NCBI GenBank assembly: GCA_945910395.1
Contig: CAMDYX010000001.1
Span: forward strand, 62,001-126,000
From: an uncultured Agathobacter sp.
Lineage (GTDB): Bacteria > Bacillota > Clostridia > Lachnospirales > Lachnospiraceae
Reading direction: 5' to 3'
Length of the DNA: 64,000 nt
The notes beneath the pieces were generated by a model, which saw only the letters and a program-made list of their open reading frames with translations, made no database searches and was not told the origin of the DNA. Below are positions 56,723-63,004 of this stretch, piece by piece. Made by a program: the position numbers and the translations under genes. How positions within the stretch are numbered: the first letter of the stretch is position 1; the number at the start of each line of letters is the position of its first letter.

Positions 56723-58963
56723 TTACTCAAATGTAATCTCTTCCTCTGCCTTGGCATAAACATCAACCTGAGTATGTACATCAAGTCTGTTAACAATCCA
56801 CCCTCTCATCATGCACATTTTTATAAAGTCATCAATTCTGTTTTCGCCATTCATCTCTTTCAAGGTAACAACAACACCAAATCGCAATCCTCTTCCGGCT
56901 TTTGGATCAAGGCGTTCTTTTGTCTTTATACTCAGTCCCCACATACCGGACTGGTAAGCCTTGCGTGGACGGGCATTTTCTTTCAATGCTTCGCTAATAT
57001 GTTTGACATTGTCCCACTTACGGTACAATTTACGTGCATCCTCCTCATAAATTGTATTGAGCCCTTCTTCAGCCTGTTTGTTGTAATCTATGGCCTTAAT
57101 TACTGCCTTGCCCTTTTGCTCTGCAATTCGCCCAAAGTGTATGTCCATCTCTGTTGATGTATAGTCAACTCCCTGATTTCTATCACTTTTCGGAAAATAA
57201 GCAAGCGTTGCTTTTGCAAAGAAAGGATGTGCATTCATATCCTGCGGTACCGGAATATTGTAAGTGTATACTTCATACTCATCAATGCTTCCTGACATAA
57301 CAAACCTTATTTCATCCTCCTGCGAGTATAAAATATCCTCAATTCTCTTCGGTACAATCCCATACCCTTTTTCATACTTAATGGTATCTTGTCTGTCCCA
57401 CCCTGCAGCAGAATCTATGATTAAAGCCTTTGCCACTTCACGGCTTAACCCCATAACATGTATGAGATATGCCATTTTACGTGTTATCCAGGGAGCCGCA
57501 AAAGATGTGCCTGTCACAGTTGCTTTTCCCAAAGGTTCACAAACCACAATTTTATCCGGACCATCTCCGCCATAGTAGCAAACATCCGGTTTATAAAAGA
57601 AAGATAACACAGGTCCTCTTCGTGTATAAGATGCAGACTGACCATTAAAATCCACAGCATTCACAACCAATGAATTCAAGGAATCTGCCGGAGCGCCTAT
57701 CTTAATAACATCTGAATTTTTCTTCCTATTTGTACCCGCCACCACAAAAATAACATCATATTCATACTGAATTTTATCCAGTTCAGCCGCCTCCGGAGAT
57801 ATAAAATTTGCGTCAATTTCCATTGCGGACCCCAATGATAGATTCCATACTTTTATATCTCGATTTTTCCGAACAATATCACGAATCTGCTTCAATATAG
57901 CGAATGAACTAAATCTCCCAGCCGTGGCAACTCCAAAATGCCGAACCCGAAAATTACCACAATTGTCCTGCAATCTTGGATTAAATGACGGACCATCAAC
58001 AATAATAGATGTTACGGCAGTACCATGAAAATAATCTTCCGGACGCAATTCAATATCATCACTTATACACCTCTGATACTCTACCCAATCGCCAAAATAT
58101 ACTCTTTTATCAAATTGGGTGTCAATAACCCCTACAATCGGTTCGTTTCCGGGCTTTGCAATAGATAATTGTTCTTCATAATCCTTACTATCTGTAATAT
58201 CATAGTCAATTTCCGTAAAGTCCTTAACACTCATTGCAATCAAATAGGGGGCTTTATCCCATAAAATATCTATCTCCTCTTTTTCCATCCGCAAAGTTGT
58301 TTCATCGATCATCTTTGCGTTAATCATATTTATGCCCAAGCCACTTAACAGCTCCGTTGTATCAACGCCCGTTTTATATATCGTTACAATAGACTGTTCG
58401 CTTGCAGTCTTTGGAGCACGGTCTATATGAAAGTTTTCAACATAAAAGCAATCTACCAGTATTTTCAAAAACGGATTTTTTTTCATGATACTATCATTAT
58501 ATTTCCCCGAATTGATAAGCTCTGTATCTTCACTCGAAATATTTCCGTTGTAAAAATTTTGAATAGTGGCCGCACATTTGTCCAAAAGCATTACTGATTT
58601 CTGCAAAGACTCAACAGAAAGGAAGTAAGTAAATACATGTTTTTGTACCCATTCATTCTTTTCATTATAGCCCTCCGAAAATTTAGACCCTCTTACAGAT
58701 AGGTTTGGATGTTTTCCGCCATCAGACAATAGAATTTGAATTCTATTACTCTTTGCTACAACTTTTCTGTAATGTACGCTAACCAAAGCTCCATGAATTG
58801 TCTTCTCTTGATTCCAAAACAAAATAATATCTTGTAACTGTTTTTTCAGTTTCAGAACATGATCTGCACGAACAGATGTCCCTTTCGGTAAATTCGTCGG
58901 TCCAAACCCATCGGGGGCTTTTCGTTTCTGAAATTGACCTTTCAATTGCAAAATATTATTCAT
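56723..58963 (-). CDS. Subtilisin-like S8 protease, IetS-like
   Basis: A 746-residue cytoplasmic serine protease with no signal peptide. Residues 1-270 are an N-terminal region with no named domain (ILLSDGGKHPNLSVRG, TYFLSVESLQKSVMLLD). The S8 catalytic triad is complete: Asp281 in IVGVIDTQFD, His313 in DYFHGTAVTSI and Ser487 in VTGTSFAAPWITRKM, with the oxyanion Asn412 in VVAGTNRKKN. About 240 residues follow the catalytic domain. An AAA+ ATPase gene precedes it with an 8-bp overlap. This pairing and the long non-secreted architecture match the IetAS system, described as a plasmid stability pair and later as an anti-phage system. AGGAG lies 10 nt before the ATG. Confidence 0.85.
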   Translation of the reverse strand: MNNILQLKGQFQKRKAPDGFGPTNLPKGTSVRADHVLKLKKQLQDIILFWNQEKTIHGALVSVHYRKVVAKSNRIQILLSDGGKHPNLSVRGSKFSEGYNEKNEWVQKHVFTYFLSVESLQKSVMLLDKCAATIQNFYNGNISSEDTELINSGKYNDSIMKKNPFLKILVDCFYVENFHIDRAPKTASEQSIVTIYKTGVDTTELLSGLGINMINAKMIDETTLRMEKEEIDILWDKAPYLIAMSVKDFTEIDYDITDSKDYEEQLSIAKPGNEPIVGVIDTQFDKRVYFGDWVEYQRCISDDIELRPEDYFHGTAVTSIIVDGPSFNPRLQDNCGNFRVRHFGVATAGRFSSFAILKQIRDIVRKNRDIKVWNLSLGSAMEIDANFISPEAAELDKIQYEYDVIFVVAGTNRKKNSDVIKIGAPADSLNSLVVNAVDFNGQSASYTRRGPVLSFFYKPDVCYYGGDGPDKIVVCEPLGKATVTGTSFAAPWITRKMAYLIHVMGLSREVAKALIIDSAAGWDRQDTIKYEKGYGIVPKRIEDILYSQEDEIRFVMSGSIDEYEVYTYNIPVPQDMNAHPFFAKATLAYFPKSDRNQGVDYTSTEMDIHFGRIAEQKGKAVIKAIDYNKQAEEGLNTIYEEDARKLYRKWDNVKHISEALKENARPRKAYQSGMWGLSIKTKERLDPKAGRGLRFGVVVTLKEMNGENRIDDFIKMCMMRGWIVNRLDVHTQVDVYAKAEEEITFE

Positions 58964-60005
58964 CTTCAACCATCTCCTTTAATTCTCTGGCGACACTACT
59001 CCTTGATACTTTACTCAAAATTTCGATTTCTCTTATCGTAAATTTTTGTTCCTGCAGCTCCTTAATATTTTCCGGTTTTTTACCTGTAACCGTATAATAT
59101 AACCTCCTAAAATAATCCATTTCATCATCCGGATCACTAAATGCCACTGCTGTTTTAATCAAATTTTTCAATTCTCCCGGATATGGTAATGGAGAAAGCA
59201 GCATCATTATTTTTCTGAATAATCTAATATCTTTTTTTGCCAAATTAAATTTAGATAAAAACTTATTTAAATATTCTTCCGAAATATCCATCAAATCATC
59301 CTGTGAATATCTATTAAAATCTATAACAGAGTCAAATCGTCTTATCAGCGCTTTATCAAAATGTTCAAATAAATTCGTAGTAGCTACTAAGACTATTCTC
59401 TCGTCCATACGATCCATATTCTTAAGTAATGATGATGTCACTCTTCCCATTTCACGCAAATCATTCGCATTTGTTCTATCTAAAGCAACAGCATCTATTT
59501 CGTCGAATAAAATTATTACTTTTTCCGGATGAACAAAACTATTAATCTCTTTGAACAGCTCTGACATATTCTTCTGGGTCTGACCCATTTTACTATCAAT
59601 GATAGCCGAAAAATCCACCATATATATTTCTCTATCCAAAATACGTGCCAACTGCTTAACTGCCTCTGTCTTACCGGTGCCGGGCGCTCCTTGAAAAAGG
59701 AATTTATTGATTCCCGCATTATGGGCTACTGCATGTACAATACCCAATAAGTCTTGGGTAATATCCTCCGGCAACCATAAAGGATCACTTATCTTTTCTA
59801 CCTTTTCAAACATGGCAGTCTCATTCTCACTCATTTGTGGAATAAATGTATTGGCATTTGACATTAACGCCATAATATATTCTGCGAGCTGATAGTCTCC
59901 TGATTGATCAAAATCTCGCGCTATCTCATAAGCTTCACTTCGAAAACCAGCATCATTATTCTCTGCATGATATTTAATTAAATTAATAACGCTCTTCTTT
60001 TTCAT
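58956..60005 (-). CDS. AAA+ ATPase, IetA-like
   Basis: A 349-residue AAA+ protein. After 75 helical residues it shows Walker A FQGAPGTGKTEAVKQLA (Gly107-Thr113), Walker B VIILFDEIDAVA (about 164-173), sensor 1 LVATTNLFEHFD and an arginine finger ALIRRFDSVIDF. The C-terminal 30 residues (FTIREIEILSKVSRSSVARE) form a helix-turn-helix, which is unusual at this position. The gene is the first of a two-gene unit with the subtilase and probably controls or feeds it. Start 60005 has AGGAG 8 nt upstream; a GTG three codons earlier is less likely. The promoter directly upstream carries two identical boxes. Confidence 0.87.
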   Translation of the reverse strand: MKKKSVINLIKYHAENNDAGFRSEAYEIARDFDQSGDYQLAEYIMALMSNANTFIPQMSENETAMFEKVEKISDPLWLPEDITQDLLGIVHAVAHNAGINKFLFQGAPGTGKTEAVKQLARILDREIYMVDFSAIIDSKMGQTQKNMSELFKEINSFVHPEKVIILFDEIDAVALDRTNANDLREMGRVTSSLLKNMDRMDERIVLVATTNLFEHFDKALIRRFDSVIDFNRYSQDDLMDISEEYLNKFLSKFNLAKKDIRLFRKIMMLLSPLPYPGELKNLIKTAVAFSDPDDEMDYFRRLYYTVTGKKPENIKELQEQKFTIREIEILSKVSRSSVARELKEMVEDE

Positions 60006-60035
60006 ATGATCCACTCCTAGTTCTTTGATATATAC

Positions 60036-60076
60036 ATCATAATTCCTTGGGACATTTTTGTCAATATTGGGACATT
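60036..60076 (-). promoter_or_regulatory. Promoter of the IetAS-like operon with two direct-repeat boxes
   Basis: On the minus strand, TTGACA (60059-60064) and TATGAT (60036-60041) are 17 bp apart. The 10-bp box TTGGGACATT (plus-strand sense) occurs at 60047-60056, inside the spacer, and at 60067-60076, just upstream of the -35 box. The 20-bp period is close to two helical turns. A bound repressor would cover the promoter. Confidence 0.65.
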
Positions 60077-60368: not shown

Positions 60369-61481
60369 ATGTTTAGAGAGATAAGAATAAAAAGTTATAG
60401 AGGCTTGCGTGATATAAGTCTAACGGATCTGGAGCCGGTAAATGTTCTTGTAGGAGACAACAATTCTGGTAAGACTTCCGTGTTAGAAGCAATTCAATTA
60501 TTTGCAGATAAAAATGTATTAACGAATATGATTTCCATCGCTAGAAAAAGAGAAACACCCTTAAATCCTCTCGGAAGAAATAAATTACAACCATTTGATG
60601 CCCTTTTGTATTCATTTCCCATGAACCAAGAACAACTGAAAGAAGTTTACCTTGAGGCATACTCCGATATTTATGATTATTGTAGAGTAGGGGTACGTGG
60701 GGAAGTACATAGGGATGCTTTCTATAGGGCAGACTTGACACTAGCGGAAATGCGTCGATATGGTACCATCTGTGACGAAGATGGGATGGTTCGCGTAATG
60801 CAAGGCGAATATGTTTTTGAAAAGGATGAAAGAGAATCGGGCGAATATATTTTCCGAGAAACGCAAGTAAAACCCGAGAAGAGAGGGGACGATAGTGCAC
60901 AGTATTTGCCGGTGAAACGAAAAGGAAATATTATGTATATTTCCCCAATGGACATTTATACGGATAAGGTTCTAACTGCCAGTCTGTATAAGGGGATGTT
61001 GGTTGAAGAAAAAGATAGATTGCTCGATTTAATGCGTCTCTTTGATGATAGAATAGTTGGAATTGAAACAGCAGTACTATATGGCAGACCGACTACAATG
61101 ATCGAGATGGAAGGAATGGGATTGATGCCCATTTCTGTTTTTGGCGACGGAGTAAAAAAAGTATTAACATTAGCAAGTGCAGTAATCAAAATGCGCGGTG
61201 GCATAGTATTGATTGATGAGTTTGAAACCGGAATACATAAAAGAGCATTGAAATATGTAGCAGAATGGATGATCTCAATAGCAAATCGATATGAAGTACA
61301 GTTTTTTTTGACAACACATAGCAGTGATGCACTTGCAGCTTTGGTAGAGGCGCAGGGGCCGTATGACAATATGCTTAGTGCATATCGGTTGGAGCATTAT
61401 AAAGATGAATTTTATGTAAAAAGCTTTGCAGGAAATGATTTGCGTATACTAAAGAACAGCCAAGGATTGGATATTTTATGA
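60369..61481 (+). CDS. OLD-like AAA ATPase (split from its TOPRIM partner)
   Basis: A 370-residue ABC/SMC-type ATPase. The N-terminus FREIRIKSYRGLRDISLTDL is typical of OLD and RecF-like ATPases. Walker A is LVGDNNSGKTSVLE (28-40); GDGVKKVLTLASAVIKMRGG, Walker B IVLIDEFETGIHK and the switch FFLTTHSSDALAAL follow. In class 1 OLD proteins the TOPRIM nuclease is in the same chain. Here it is a separate gene overlapping by ATGA, an arrangement like class 4 OLD or Gabija-like pairs. AGGGAG lies 5 nt before the ATG. The likely role is phage defence or DNA repair. Confidence 0.87.
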   Translation: MFREIRIKSYRGLRDISLTDLEPVNVLVGDNNSGKTSVLEAIQLFADKNVLTNMISIARKRETPLNPLGRNKLQPFDALLYSFPMNQEQLKEVYLEAYSDIYDYCRVGVRGEVHRDAFYRADLTLAEMRRYGTICDEDGMVRVMQGEYVFEKDERESGEYIFRETQVKPEKRGDDSAQYLPVKRKGNIMYISPMDIYTDKVLTASLYKGMLVEEKDRLLDLMRLFDDRIVGIETAVLYGRPTTMIEMEGMGLMPISVFGDGVKKVLTLASAVIKMRGGIVLIDEFETGIHKRALKYVAEWMISIANRYEVQFFLTTHSSDALAALVEAQGPYDNMLSAYRLEHYKDEFYVKSFAGNDLRILKNSQGLDIL

Positions 61482-62248
61482 GAAATTATTTGATTATTGT
61501 CGAGGGGGCACATGATATTGCTTTACTTGAGAAATTACTGCGATTAAATGGAGTTGATGAAAAAATCAGCAATGAAAATAGCCTTCCAGAAGTTTGGAAA
61601 CATACCATTCCGACAAGATACCCATTTCATGCCGACAGATTGGAGCGGATTACACCAATACCTAGTTTTGTAAAAAATTCTGAGGTTTCTGTTGCAATAA
61701 AAAATGCAAATAGCGATACGGAAATCATGAATGTACTTCAGCAAACATTGCATCTTATGGAAGTTAGAGAATTGGATCAGGTTAGCGGAATTATGTTAAT
61801 CTGCGATGCAGACAATTTAAAAGCGGATGAAAAAAGACACAGGTTGCTGGCTTCCAGAGAAGAGAAAGAAGATTTTATGCTGGATGAGAAGACAATGGAG
61901 CTAAACGTGAGTATAAAGAAAATTCCACTATATACATTTATTTTTCCTGATAATAGCGGTATTGGAAATCTGGAGAATCTGCTCTTGCAAACCGCAGAAG
62001 TAGAATATCCAGAATTGCTCAAATTGGCATCAGAGTACGTAGAGAAGGCTTCCGACATTTGCACCGATTTGAAAAAGGAGCAAAAAGCCAAAAAGGCAAA
62101 AGTAGGGTGTATTGCAAATGCGATGAAGCCGGGGAAAGCAAACCAGGTATCAATTGCGGATGACAATTGGGTATCTCGTAGAACTATGAGCGAATGCTCG
62201 ATGTTGAAAATGCTTGACAAGTCATTAAAGGAAATGATATGTAAATGA
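61478..62248 (+). CDS. TOPRIM-domain protein (DUF3226-like), ATPase partner
   Basis: A 256-residue protein with the TOPRIM glutamate in LIIVEGAHDIALLEKLL (Glu9) and the Asp-x-Asp pair in IMLICDADNLKADEKRHRLL (110 and 112). IFPDNSGIGNLENLLLQ resembles the DUF3226 proteins that pair with ABC-type ATPases. The C-terminal part is lysine-rich and helical (KKEQKAKKAKVGCIANAMKP). It is translationally coupled with the ATPase gene by the ATGA overlap. It probably cuts DNA or RNA once the ATPase is triggered. A strong terminator follows. Confidence 0.84.
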   Translation: MRNYLIIVEGAHDIALLEKLLRLNGVDEKISNENSLPEVWKHTIPTRYPFHADRLERITPIPSFVKNSEVSVAIKNANSDTEIMNVLQQTLHLMEVRELDQVSGIMLICDADNLKADEKRHRLLASREEKEDFMLDEKTMELNVSIKKIPLYTFIFPDNSGIGNLENLLLQTAEVEYPELLKLASEYVEKASDICTDLKKEQKAKKAKVGCIANAMKPGKANQVSIADDNWVSRRTMSECSMLKMLDKSLKEMICK

Positions 62249-62270
62249 GTCTCGACTTTGTCTACAGTCT

Positions 62271-62298
62271 GAGGCTTTCCATTTGGAAAGCCTCTTTT
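62271..62298 (+). terminator. Terminator of the ATPase/TOPRIM operon
   Basis: A perfect 10-bp stem GAGGCTTTCC/GGAAAGCCTC with an ATTT loop, followed by TTTT, lies 22 bp after the stop codon. Confidence 0.88.
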
Positions 62299-62324
62299 AC
62301 AACTTAATAATTCTATATTCGTAA

Positions 62325-62460
62325 GCGCCTCATAGTGAGCACTCCCACTATAGAGCGTTTTCGCTTCAACAATGGAAACCAGTGTGTCAATACCAGATCT
62401 CAGGTCCGTATAACCACAGACGATATAGATGTCGTTGGCTACCGAAATATCGCCTAACAT
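62325..62460 (-). pseudogene. IS66 TnpB (Orf2) remnant
   Basis: The first 33 codons from ATG 62460 read MLGDISVANDIYIVCGYTDL then RSGIDTLVSIVE, the conserved N-terminus of the IS66 accessory protein TnpB. After about 62361 the match stops, and the frame runs through the right end of the element into the neighbouring operon on the other strand. The usual length is about 115 residues. Confidence 0.8.
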
Positions 62461-62846
62461 AAGGGACCTCTCATCGCAAGTATTACTTGCGTTAACAACG
62501 AAGAATCCGTTCCGTTAGGAATTGTCAGCCTGGCACCATTTATTTCAAGAAGCAATGAGTTGGATGAAACCGGTGCTGATTGTTCATCATTAACGACGAG
62601 AGCTGATGGTTTTGGAATCACATCCAGCAACACTACATCCTGATGCTGCGCCGGAAGCTTTAATTCATTCCAATTAGATTCCGGAATATCACAGCTTCTT
62701 TTGCGGAGTCTGGATACCCAGTTGTAAAACGTAGCCGGACGAATTCCGTTTTCAATGCACCACTGTGCATCGGTCTTGCCGCTTCTGCGGCATTCCATTA
62801 CAAGTTTAAGCTGCTGGGCAGCTGAAGTTTTTGAGTTACGACTCAT
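62454..62846 (-). CDS. IS66 family TnpA (Orf1) accessory protein
   Basis: A 130-residue helix-turn-helix protein of IS66 elements. It shows AAQQLKLVMECRRSGKTDAQ, WCIENGIRPATFYNWVSRLR (recognition helix region) and the C-terminal LLEINGARLTIPNGTDSSLL typical of TnpA. The start at 62846 has GGAGG 9-10 nt upstream; an earlier ATG seventeen codons upstream lies outside the conserved part. It overlaps the tnpB remnant by 7 bp, as in intact IS66 elements. It probably has no function without TnpC. Confidence 0.85.
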   Translation of the reverse strand: MSRNSKTSAAQQLKLVMECRRSGKTDAQWCIENGIRPATFYNWVSRLRKRSCDIPESNWNELKLPAQHQDVVLLDVIPKPSALVVNDEQSAPVSSNSLLLEINGARLTIPNGTDSSLLTQVILAMRGPLC

Positions 62847-63004
62847 GGATAGATACCTCCCATAATTATTAGAGTAAAACACTCGCTTTACTATCAATAA
62901 TTATGAAGAAGATAGAACAATTAAACAATCCGCCCGATTATTAGGCGCTTACTTTCAAAGTGTACTAAGTATATCAAAAACACATCATAATATTCACCAA
63001 TTTT

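What the first reader, a model, noticed from the sequence alone, without database searches (positions are those of the whole stretch)
56723..60005. IetAS-like AAA+ ATPase and subtilase pair in a chromosomal defence island
The AAA+ gene (Walker A, Walker B, arginine finger) overlaps by 8 bp a cytoplasmic subtilase with a full Asp281/His313/Ser487 triad. Known IetAS systems combine these two activities. The AAA+ partner here ends in a helix-turn-helix, so the same protein might both drive the protease and repress the operon. A divergent ATPase/TOPRIM operon and a DUF2971 gene lie next door, which supports a defence island.
Basis: partly seen in the sequence, partly recalled or inferred. Interest (0 to 1): 0.75.

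Follow-up and report, generated by a model that had tools for sequence, protein, structure and literature searches.

The report
IetAS toxin–antitoxin pair with conserved operator
This is a Firmicutes branch of a known bacterial defence and toxin–antitoxin pair (a protein-cutting toxin held in check by an ATPase partner), and it carries a highly conserved repeated DNA switch in its promoter that the ATPase partner probably binds to control its own operon.

Summary
IetA (58956-60005, -) is an intact AAA+ ATPase; IetS (56723-58963, -) is an intact subtilase with triad D281/H313/S487. They overlap by 8 bp and lie in a real defence island. Both belong to the IetA/IetS family: PADLOC 4e-41 and 2e-64; near full-length profile–profile matches to proteobacterial IetA/IetS, 2e-37 and 1e-45. 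The ATPase does not 'drive' the protease in the tested relatives read about. In SgiAT and Mycoplasma TA132/133 the subtilase is the toxin and the AAA+ protein neutralises it.

Two TGTCCC half-sites, 20 bp apart, straddle the -35 box of ietA. This direct repeat occurs once in the 3.1 Mb genome. It is found upstream of 35 of 39 Firmicutes-clade ietA genes (null 0.08%), including 8 of 8 loci fetched after the motif was seen. The three clusters with a lost or altered IetA recognition helix also lack the operator, though they are the most diverged, so this may be one event. An orphan, HTH-less IetA without IetS on Lactobacillus plasmids suggests stolen antitoxins.

Verdict: new member of a known kind, with a new, testable regulatory element. 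Phage protection here is untested.

The parts
58956..60005 (-). ietA: classical-clade AAA+ ATPase, predicted antitoxin and autorepressor (349 aa)
   Evidence: PADLOC IetA PDLC02196 4.3e-41; profile match to proteobacterial IetA 2.3e-37 over residues 8-346; AF2 pLDDT 85, best PDB folds proteasome RPT / Vps4 / PAN / FtsH
59667..59690 (-). IetA Walker A, residues 106-113
   Evidence: conserved in family alignments
59499..59519 (-). IetA Walker B, residues 163-169 (D168, E169)
59337..59342 (-). IetA arginine fingers R222-R223
   Evidence: invariant
58971..59045 (-). IetA C-terminal helix-turn-helix, residues 321-345
   Evidence: AF2 helices 324-331 and 335-348; Pfam HTH matches in relatives; aligned with proteobacterial IetA
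56723..58963 (-). ietS: cytoplasmic subtilase, predicted toxin (746 aa)
   Evidence: PADLOC IetS PDLC02197 1.9e-64; Pfam Peptidase_S8 5.7e-30; profile match to proteobacterial IetS 1.4e-45
58208..58396 (-). IetS residues 190-252: subtilisin-propeptide (I9)-like domain just before the catalytic domain (inferred)
   Evidence: AF2 strand/helix order; best Foldseek hits are propeptide-bearing subtilases, 3afg 7.7e-20; no Pfam I9 hit
57359..58150 (-). IetS Peptidase_S8 domain, residues 272-535, triad D281/H313/S487
58956..58963 (.). 8-bp overlap of ietA stop and ietS start
   Evidence: also 8 bp in Mesomycoplasma and Macrococcoides
60049..60074 (-). candidate operator: direct repeat TGTCCC-N14-TGTCCC
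   Evidence: conserved upstream of ietA in 35 of 39 clade loci, null 0.0008; single hit in the 3.1 Mb genome
60036..60064 (-). sigma-70-type promoter TTGACA-17-TATGAT, -35 lying between the two half-sites
   Evidence: 11 of 12 matches
60014..60018 (-). ietA ribosome-binding site AGGAG, 8 nt before ATG
   Evidence: sequence
60369..61481 (+). PDC-M38A ATPase (neighbouring defence candidate, not part of ietAS)
   Evidence: PADLOC 3e-71
61478..62248 (+). PDC-M38B, DUF3226 protein (neighbouring defence candidate)
   Evidence: PADLOC 1.3e-14, Pfam DUF3226 6.6e-16

Best explanation
A chromosomal IetAS-family toxin-antitoxin and defence module. IetS is a cytoplasmic subtilase toxin that would kill or arrest the cell by proteolysis. 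It probably carries its own propeptide-like inhibitory domain (inferred). IetA, a ring-forming classical AAA+ ATPase, neutralises IetS (shown in homologues, inferred here). IetA's C-terminal HTH binds two TGTCCC half-sites, two helical turns apart, that straddle the -35 box, and represses the translationally coupled ietA-ietS operon (strong comparative inference, no binding shown). When an invading phage or plasmid disturbs IetA, IetS is released and the operon derepressed, giving abortive infection or post-segregational killing (inferred; trigger unknown).
For: Family. Triad and Walker residues conserved. Pairing: 16 of 16 full-length copies in 299 family genomes, 8 of 8 phylum-wide loci, and every uncut viral-contig IetS; IetA and IetS distances correlate r = 0.97. 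Toxin/antitoxin roles: PMC5006074, PMC8562856; an M. hyorhinis copy, a species that paper lists as holding a homologue, is 47% (IetA) and 43% (IetS) identical to this pair. Operator. Island: AbiH 6e-37 and an AriA-like ATPase 1.8e-26 lie within about 14 kb past the window end.
Against: NCBIfam equivalog cut-offs are missed (IteS 172 of 900 bits, IteA 107 of 510), so it is a distant branch. I know of no test of toxicity, neutralisation or phage protection for a Clostridia member. Operator recognition by IetA is inferred from co-occurrence; the three clusters lacking both are the most diverged and may share one event. The model confidence around several IetS loops is low. SgiAT's promoter was strongly active in one study (PMC9927553), which does not suggest tight repression there.
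Confidence: 0.72

Rival explanations
1. AAA+ unfoldase feeds substrates to the subtilase: IetA and IetS form one ATP-dependent protease, and both are needed for activity.
For: IetA's fold is closest to proteasome RPT, PAN and FtsH motors; strict pairing; a ring with a pore loop (SKMG) is plausible.
Against: In two tested homologous systems the subtilase is toxic alone and the AAA+ partner suppresses toxicity. The pore-loop-1 position has K-M-G or L-L-G, without the usual aromatic residue (by eye). Orphan IetA exists without IetS.
Confidence: 0.15
2. The module is purely an addiction/stabilisation cassette of an integrated element, with no anti-phage role.
For: Named homologues stabilise pTiC58 and SGI1 (PMC5006074); near-identical copies (about 90%) sit in unrelated sites, e.g. 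beside a translation-factor operon in L011.
Against: It lies in a cluster of defence candidates (PDC-M38, AbiH, AriA-like) with no replication or conjugation gene seen nearby; PADLOC and NCBIfam list the family as anti-phage.
Confidence: 0.25
3. The TGTCCC repeats are the binding site of an unrelated host regulator, not of IetA.
For: No binding data; the HTH could serve protein contacts.
Against: The site occurs only at ietA in its own genome, is carried with ietA in 20 clusters, and in G212 the searched pattern occurs at both ietAS copies and nowhere else. It disappears together with the HTH recognition helix.
Confidence: 0.2

Closest known systems
Mycoplasma mycoides subsp. capri TA132/133 (AAA-ATPase / subtilisin-like protease, PMC8562856)
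   Same: Same gene order and sizes (353/757 aa there, 349/746 here); full-length homology via the M. hyorhinis copy (47% and 43%), which also has the 8-bp overlap.
   Different: The mycoplasmal IetA examined here (M. hyorhinis) has lost the HTH recognition helix and the TGTCCC operator. The M. mycoides proteins themselves were not aligned.
SgiAT of Salmonella genomic island 1 (PMC5006074)
   Same: AAA+ antitoxin upstream of subtilase toxin in one operon; subtilase toxic in E. coli within 30 min, AAA+ rescues.
   Different: On a mobilizable island; SgiAT itself was not aligned here, and no TGTCCC operator was found in the proteobacterial relatives examined.
IetAS of pTiC58 / iteA-iteS in NCBIfam and PADLOC ietAS
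   Same: Near full-length profile homology of both proteins with proteobacterial members, including HTH and C-terminal domain.
   Different: About 19-24% identity to the Acidovorax and Agrobacterium copies; below NCBIfam equivalog cut-offs.
PHROGs 3964 and 3757 (unknown function)
   Same: Match IetS (5e-128) and IetA (2e-76) over nearly their full length.
   Different: Unannotated families; they can now be named IetS and IetA.

Membership tests
IetAS anti-phage / toxin-antitoxin family | AAA+ ATPase with intact Walker A/B matching IetA models | tested here: met
   PDLC02196 4.3e-41 covering profile 5-370 of 374; motifs conserved
IetAS anti-phage / toxin-antitoxin family | Subtilase with complete Asp/His/Ser triad matching IetS models | tested here: met
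   PDLC02197 1.9e-64 covering 242-748 of 749; D281/H313/S487 invariant
IetAS anti-phage / toxin-antitoxin family | Adjacent genes, ietA upstream of ietS, conserved pairing | tested here: met
   16 of 16 in family sample, 8 of 8 phylum-wide
NCBIfam equivalogs IteS NF042956 / IteA NF042959 | Score above curated equivalog cut-off | tested here: not met
   172 of 900 and 107 of 510 bits: same family, not the same equivalog
IetAS anti-phage / toxin-antitoxin family | Subtilase toxic alone, AAA+ partner neutralises | not testable with these tools
   shown for homologues only (PMC5006074, PMC8562856)
IetAS anti-phage / toxin-antitoxin family | Protection against phage | not testable with these tools
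   no assay for this clade
Secreted or maturation subtilases (e.g. T7SS mycosin) | Best family score, export signal | tested here: not met
   mycosin 1.7e-6 versus IetS 1.9e-64; no signal sequence apparent by eye
Autoregulated type II toxin-antitoxin operons | DNA-binding domain in the antitoxin plus operator repeats over its own promoter | tested here: inconclusive
   HTH and operator both present in 20 of 23 clusters, both absent or altered in 3; binding not measured

The most novel reading that the evidence does not exclude
IetA is a bifunctional AAA+ antitoxin and repressor: its ring carries HTHs that read direct TGTCCC repeats over its own promoter, and mobile elements carry HTH-less orphan IetA (Ligilactobacillus salivarius plasmids, 45% identity) as stolen antidotes against a recipient's IetS.
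Probability: 0.4. Interest if true: 0.62.

Novelty: new member of a known kind. Interest (0 to 1): 0.42.

Why it matters
IetAS is widespread, but papers read here still call its defence mechanism unknown. A sharply defined operator that comes and goes with the antitoxin's recognition helix turns 'how is this lethal protease kept off?' into a simple test (gel shift, reporter). The orphan plasmid-borne IetA gives a directly testable counter-defence candidate. Two unannotated phage protein families (PHROGs 3964 and 3757) can be named.

Tried and rejected
Secreted or maturation protease: rejected on family scores. ATPase that activates the protease: disfavoured by published neutralisation data. 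Operator as a mere promoter by-product: rejected because half-sites stay invariant while spacer and flanks diverge, and several loci (L030, L088, L091) keep the half-sites without a TTGACA -35. TGTCCC operator in proteobacterial ietAS: absent in all six examined; some of their upstream regions share another word (CGTTAC), not pursued. Linking PDC-M38 to ietAS: not seen in the flanks of near relatives on inspection of their ORFs, so treated as a neighbour only. L056 solo AAA in a viral contig: lacks HTH and has no IetS, but is only 28% identical, so weak evidence. A search for more orphans like the Ligilactobacillus one in IMG/VR found none. The original pTiC58 paper is not held. An I9-inhibitor Pfam match for the IetS prodomain was not found.

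Full report
Observation. The numbering D281/H313/S487 is right for the ATG start. These three residues, N412 and the ATPase motifs are conserved in the relatives that cover them. The 8-bp overlap recurs in Macrococcoides and Mesomycoplasma copies but not everywhere.

Identity. PADLOC assigns IetS (1.9e-64) and IetA (4.3e-41). The NCBIfam equivalogs IteS and IteA are hit far below their cut-offs, so this is a separate branch. Profile–profile comparison with eight proteobacterial members, among them annotated iteS genes, shows homology over nearly the whole length of both proteins: 1.4e-45 for IetS and 2.3e-37 for IetA. The IetA alignment includes the C-terminal helix-turn-helix, so the HTH is a family trait. 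PHROGs 3964 and 3757, both unannotated, match nearly full length.

Pairing and spread. Among 299 genomes of the same family, all 16 full-length IetS copies (15 genomes) have IetA directly upstream. Eight further copies found across the phylum are also paired. Distances of the two proteins correlate at r = 0.97. Copies about 90% identical lie in unrelated chromosomal sites, and others are on plasmids and in viral contigs. This indicates transfer as a unit.

Structure. The IetA model (pLDDT 85) has an N-terminal helical bundle, a classical-clade AAA+ core (nearest to proteasome RPT, PAN, Vps4 and FtsH) and a confident C-terminal HTH. The IetS model (pLDDT 80) has an N-terminal domain, a subtilisin-propeptide-like element order at about 190-252, the S8 domain and a beta-rich C-terminal domain. 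Its best structural match is a propeptide-bearing subtilase. The propeptide reading is an inference; no Pfam I9 match was found.

What it does. Two papers read here show the same arrangement as a toxin–antitoxin system with the subtilase as toxin and the AAA+ protein as antitoxin: SgiAT in E. coli (PMC5006074) and TA132/133 in E. coli and Mycoplasma capricolum, with functional homologues from three other mycoplasmas (PMC8562856). The pTiC58 system was read about only through these papers (original not held). Hence the likely relation is restraint, not drive. That the family defends against phage is from database annotation and general knowledge; papers read call the mechanism unknown.

A new element. 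Upstream of ietA there is TGTCCCAATATTGACAAAAATGTCCC at 60049-60074 (minus strand). The -35 box of a near-perfect promoter (11 of 12 matches) lies between the two half-sites. It is the only exact TGTCCC-N12-16-TGTCCC in the 3.14 Mb genome. A pair of half-sites with at most one mismatch and spacing 19-22 is present upstream of 35 of 39 clade loci, against 0.08% in Markov-generated upstream regions. The motif was noticed in near relatives and then found in all eight phylum-wide loci fetched afterwards. After clustering at 85% identity, 20 of 23 clusters have the operator (one with a degenerate second half-site) and the same 20 keep the recognition-helix motif [KR]S. The other three (Mesomycoplasma, Macrococcoides, Ligilactobacillus orphan) lack both. 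Treated as independent, that split has a chance of 1 in 1771 (my arithmetic); but the three are the most diverged members, so fewer events may be involved. Half-site positions are near invariant while spacer and flanks diverge, so common descent alone is a poor explanation. The direct, not inverted, orientation would suit a head-to-tail ring protein (speculation). A paper search for a described ietAS operator found none in the library held.

Orphans. Two Ligilactobacillus salivarius plasmids carry an IetA 45% identical to this one, with intact Walker motifs, the HTH cut off before its recognition helix, no operator, and no IetS within about 4 kb. On pLMP1046, where I read the annotation of almost the whole record, no S8 peptidase is annotated and the gene lies in a run of small genes, near a DUF4065 gene. 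A stolen antidote is a plausible reading, not shown.

Island. Beyond the window end lie the rest of DUF2971, a 175-aa protein and a 2095-aa protein without Pfam hits, an AbiH protein (6e-37) and an AriA-like ATPase (1.8e-26). With PDC-M38 on the near side, a defence island between polysaccharide genes is well supported.

Noticed in passing
L093:2145-8432 (G000:C1, just past the window end), with L093:1625-2152 and the DUF2971 gene at window 63005 onward: A 2095-aa protein with no Pfam or PADLOC match, followed by a 175-aa protein and a DUF2971 protein in one apparent operon inside the defence island; a possible undescribed system.
   Followed up: partly
L094:4001-5005 and L095:4001-5005: Orphan, HTH-truncated IetA without IetS on Ligilactobacillus salivarius plasmids; candidate anti-IetS antidote.
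   Followed up: partly
window 61777-62897 (minus strand): IS66 remnant: TnpA-like ORF (62454-62897) followed by the start of a TnpB whose frame runs on antisense to PDC-M38B.
   Followed up: no
L011:5425-5700, also L003, L006, L010: A 91-aa DUF3892 gene divergent from ietA in four near relatives; it may travel with the cassette but is missing in the window.
   Followed up: partly
L065/L066/L080/L081 upstream of ietA: Proteobacterial copies lack TGTCCC but share the word CGTTAC before ietA; possibly their own operator.
   Followed up: no
PHROGs 3964 and 3757: Unannotated phage protein families that correspond to IetS and IetA.
   Followed up: yes
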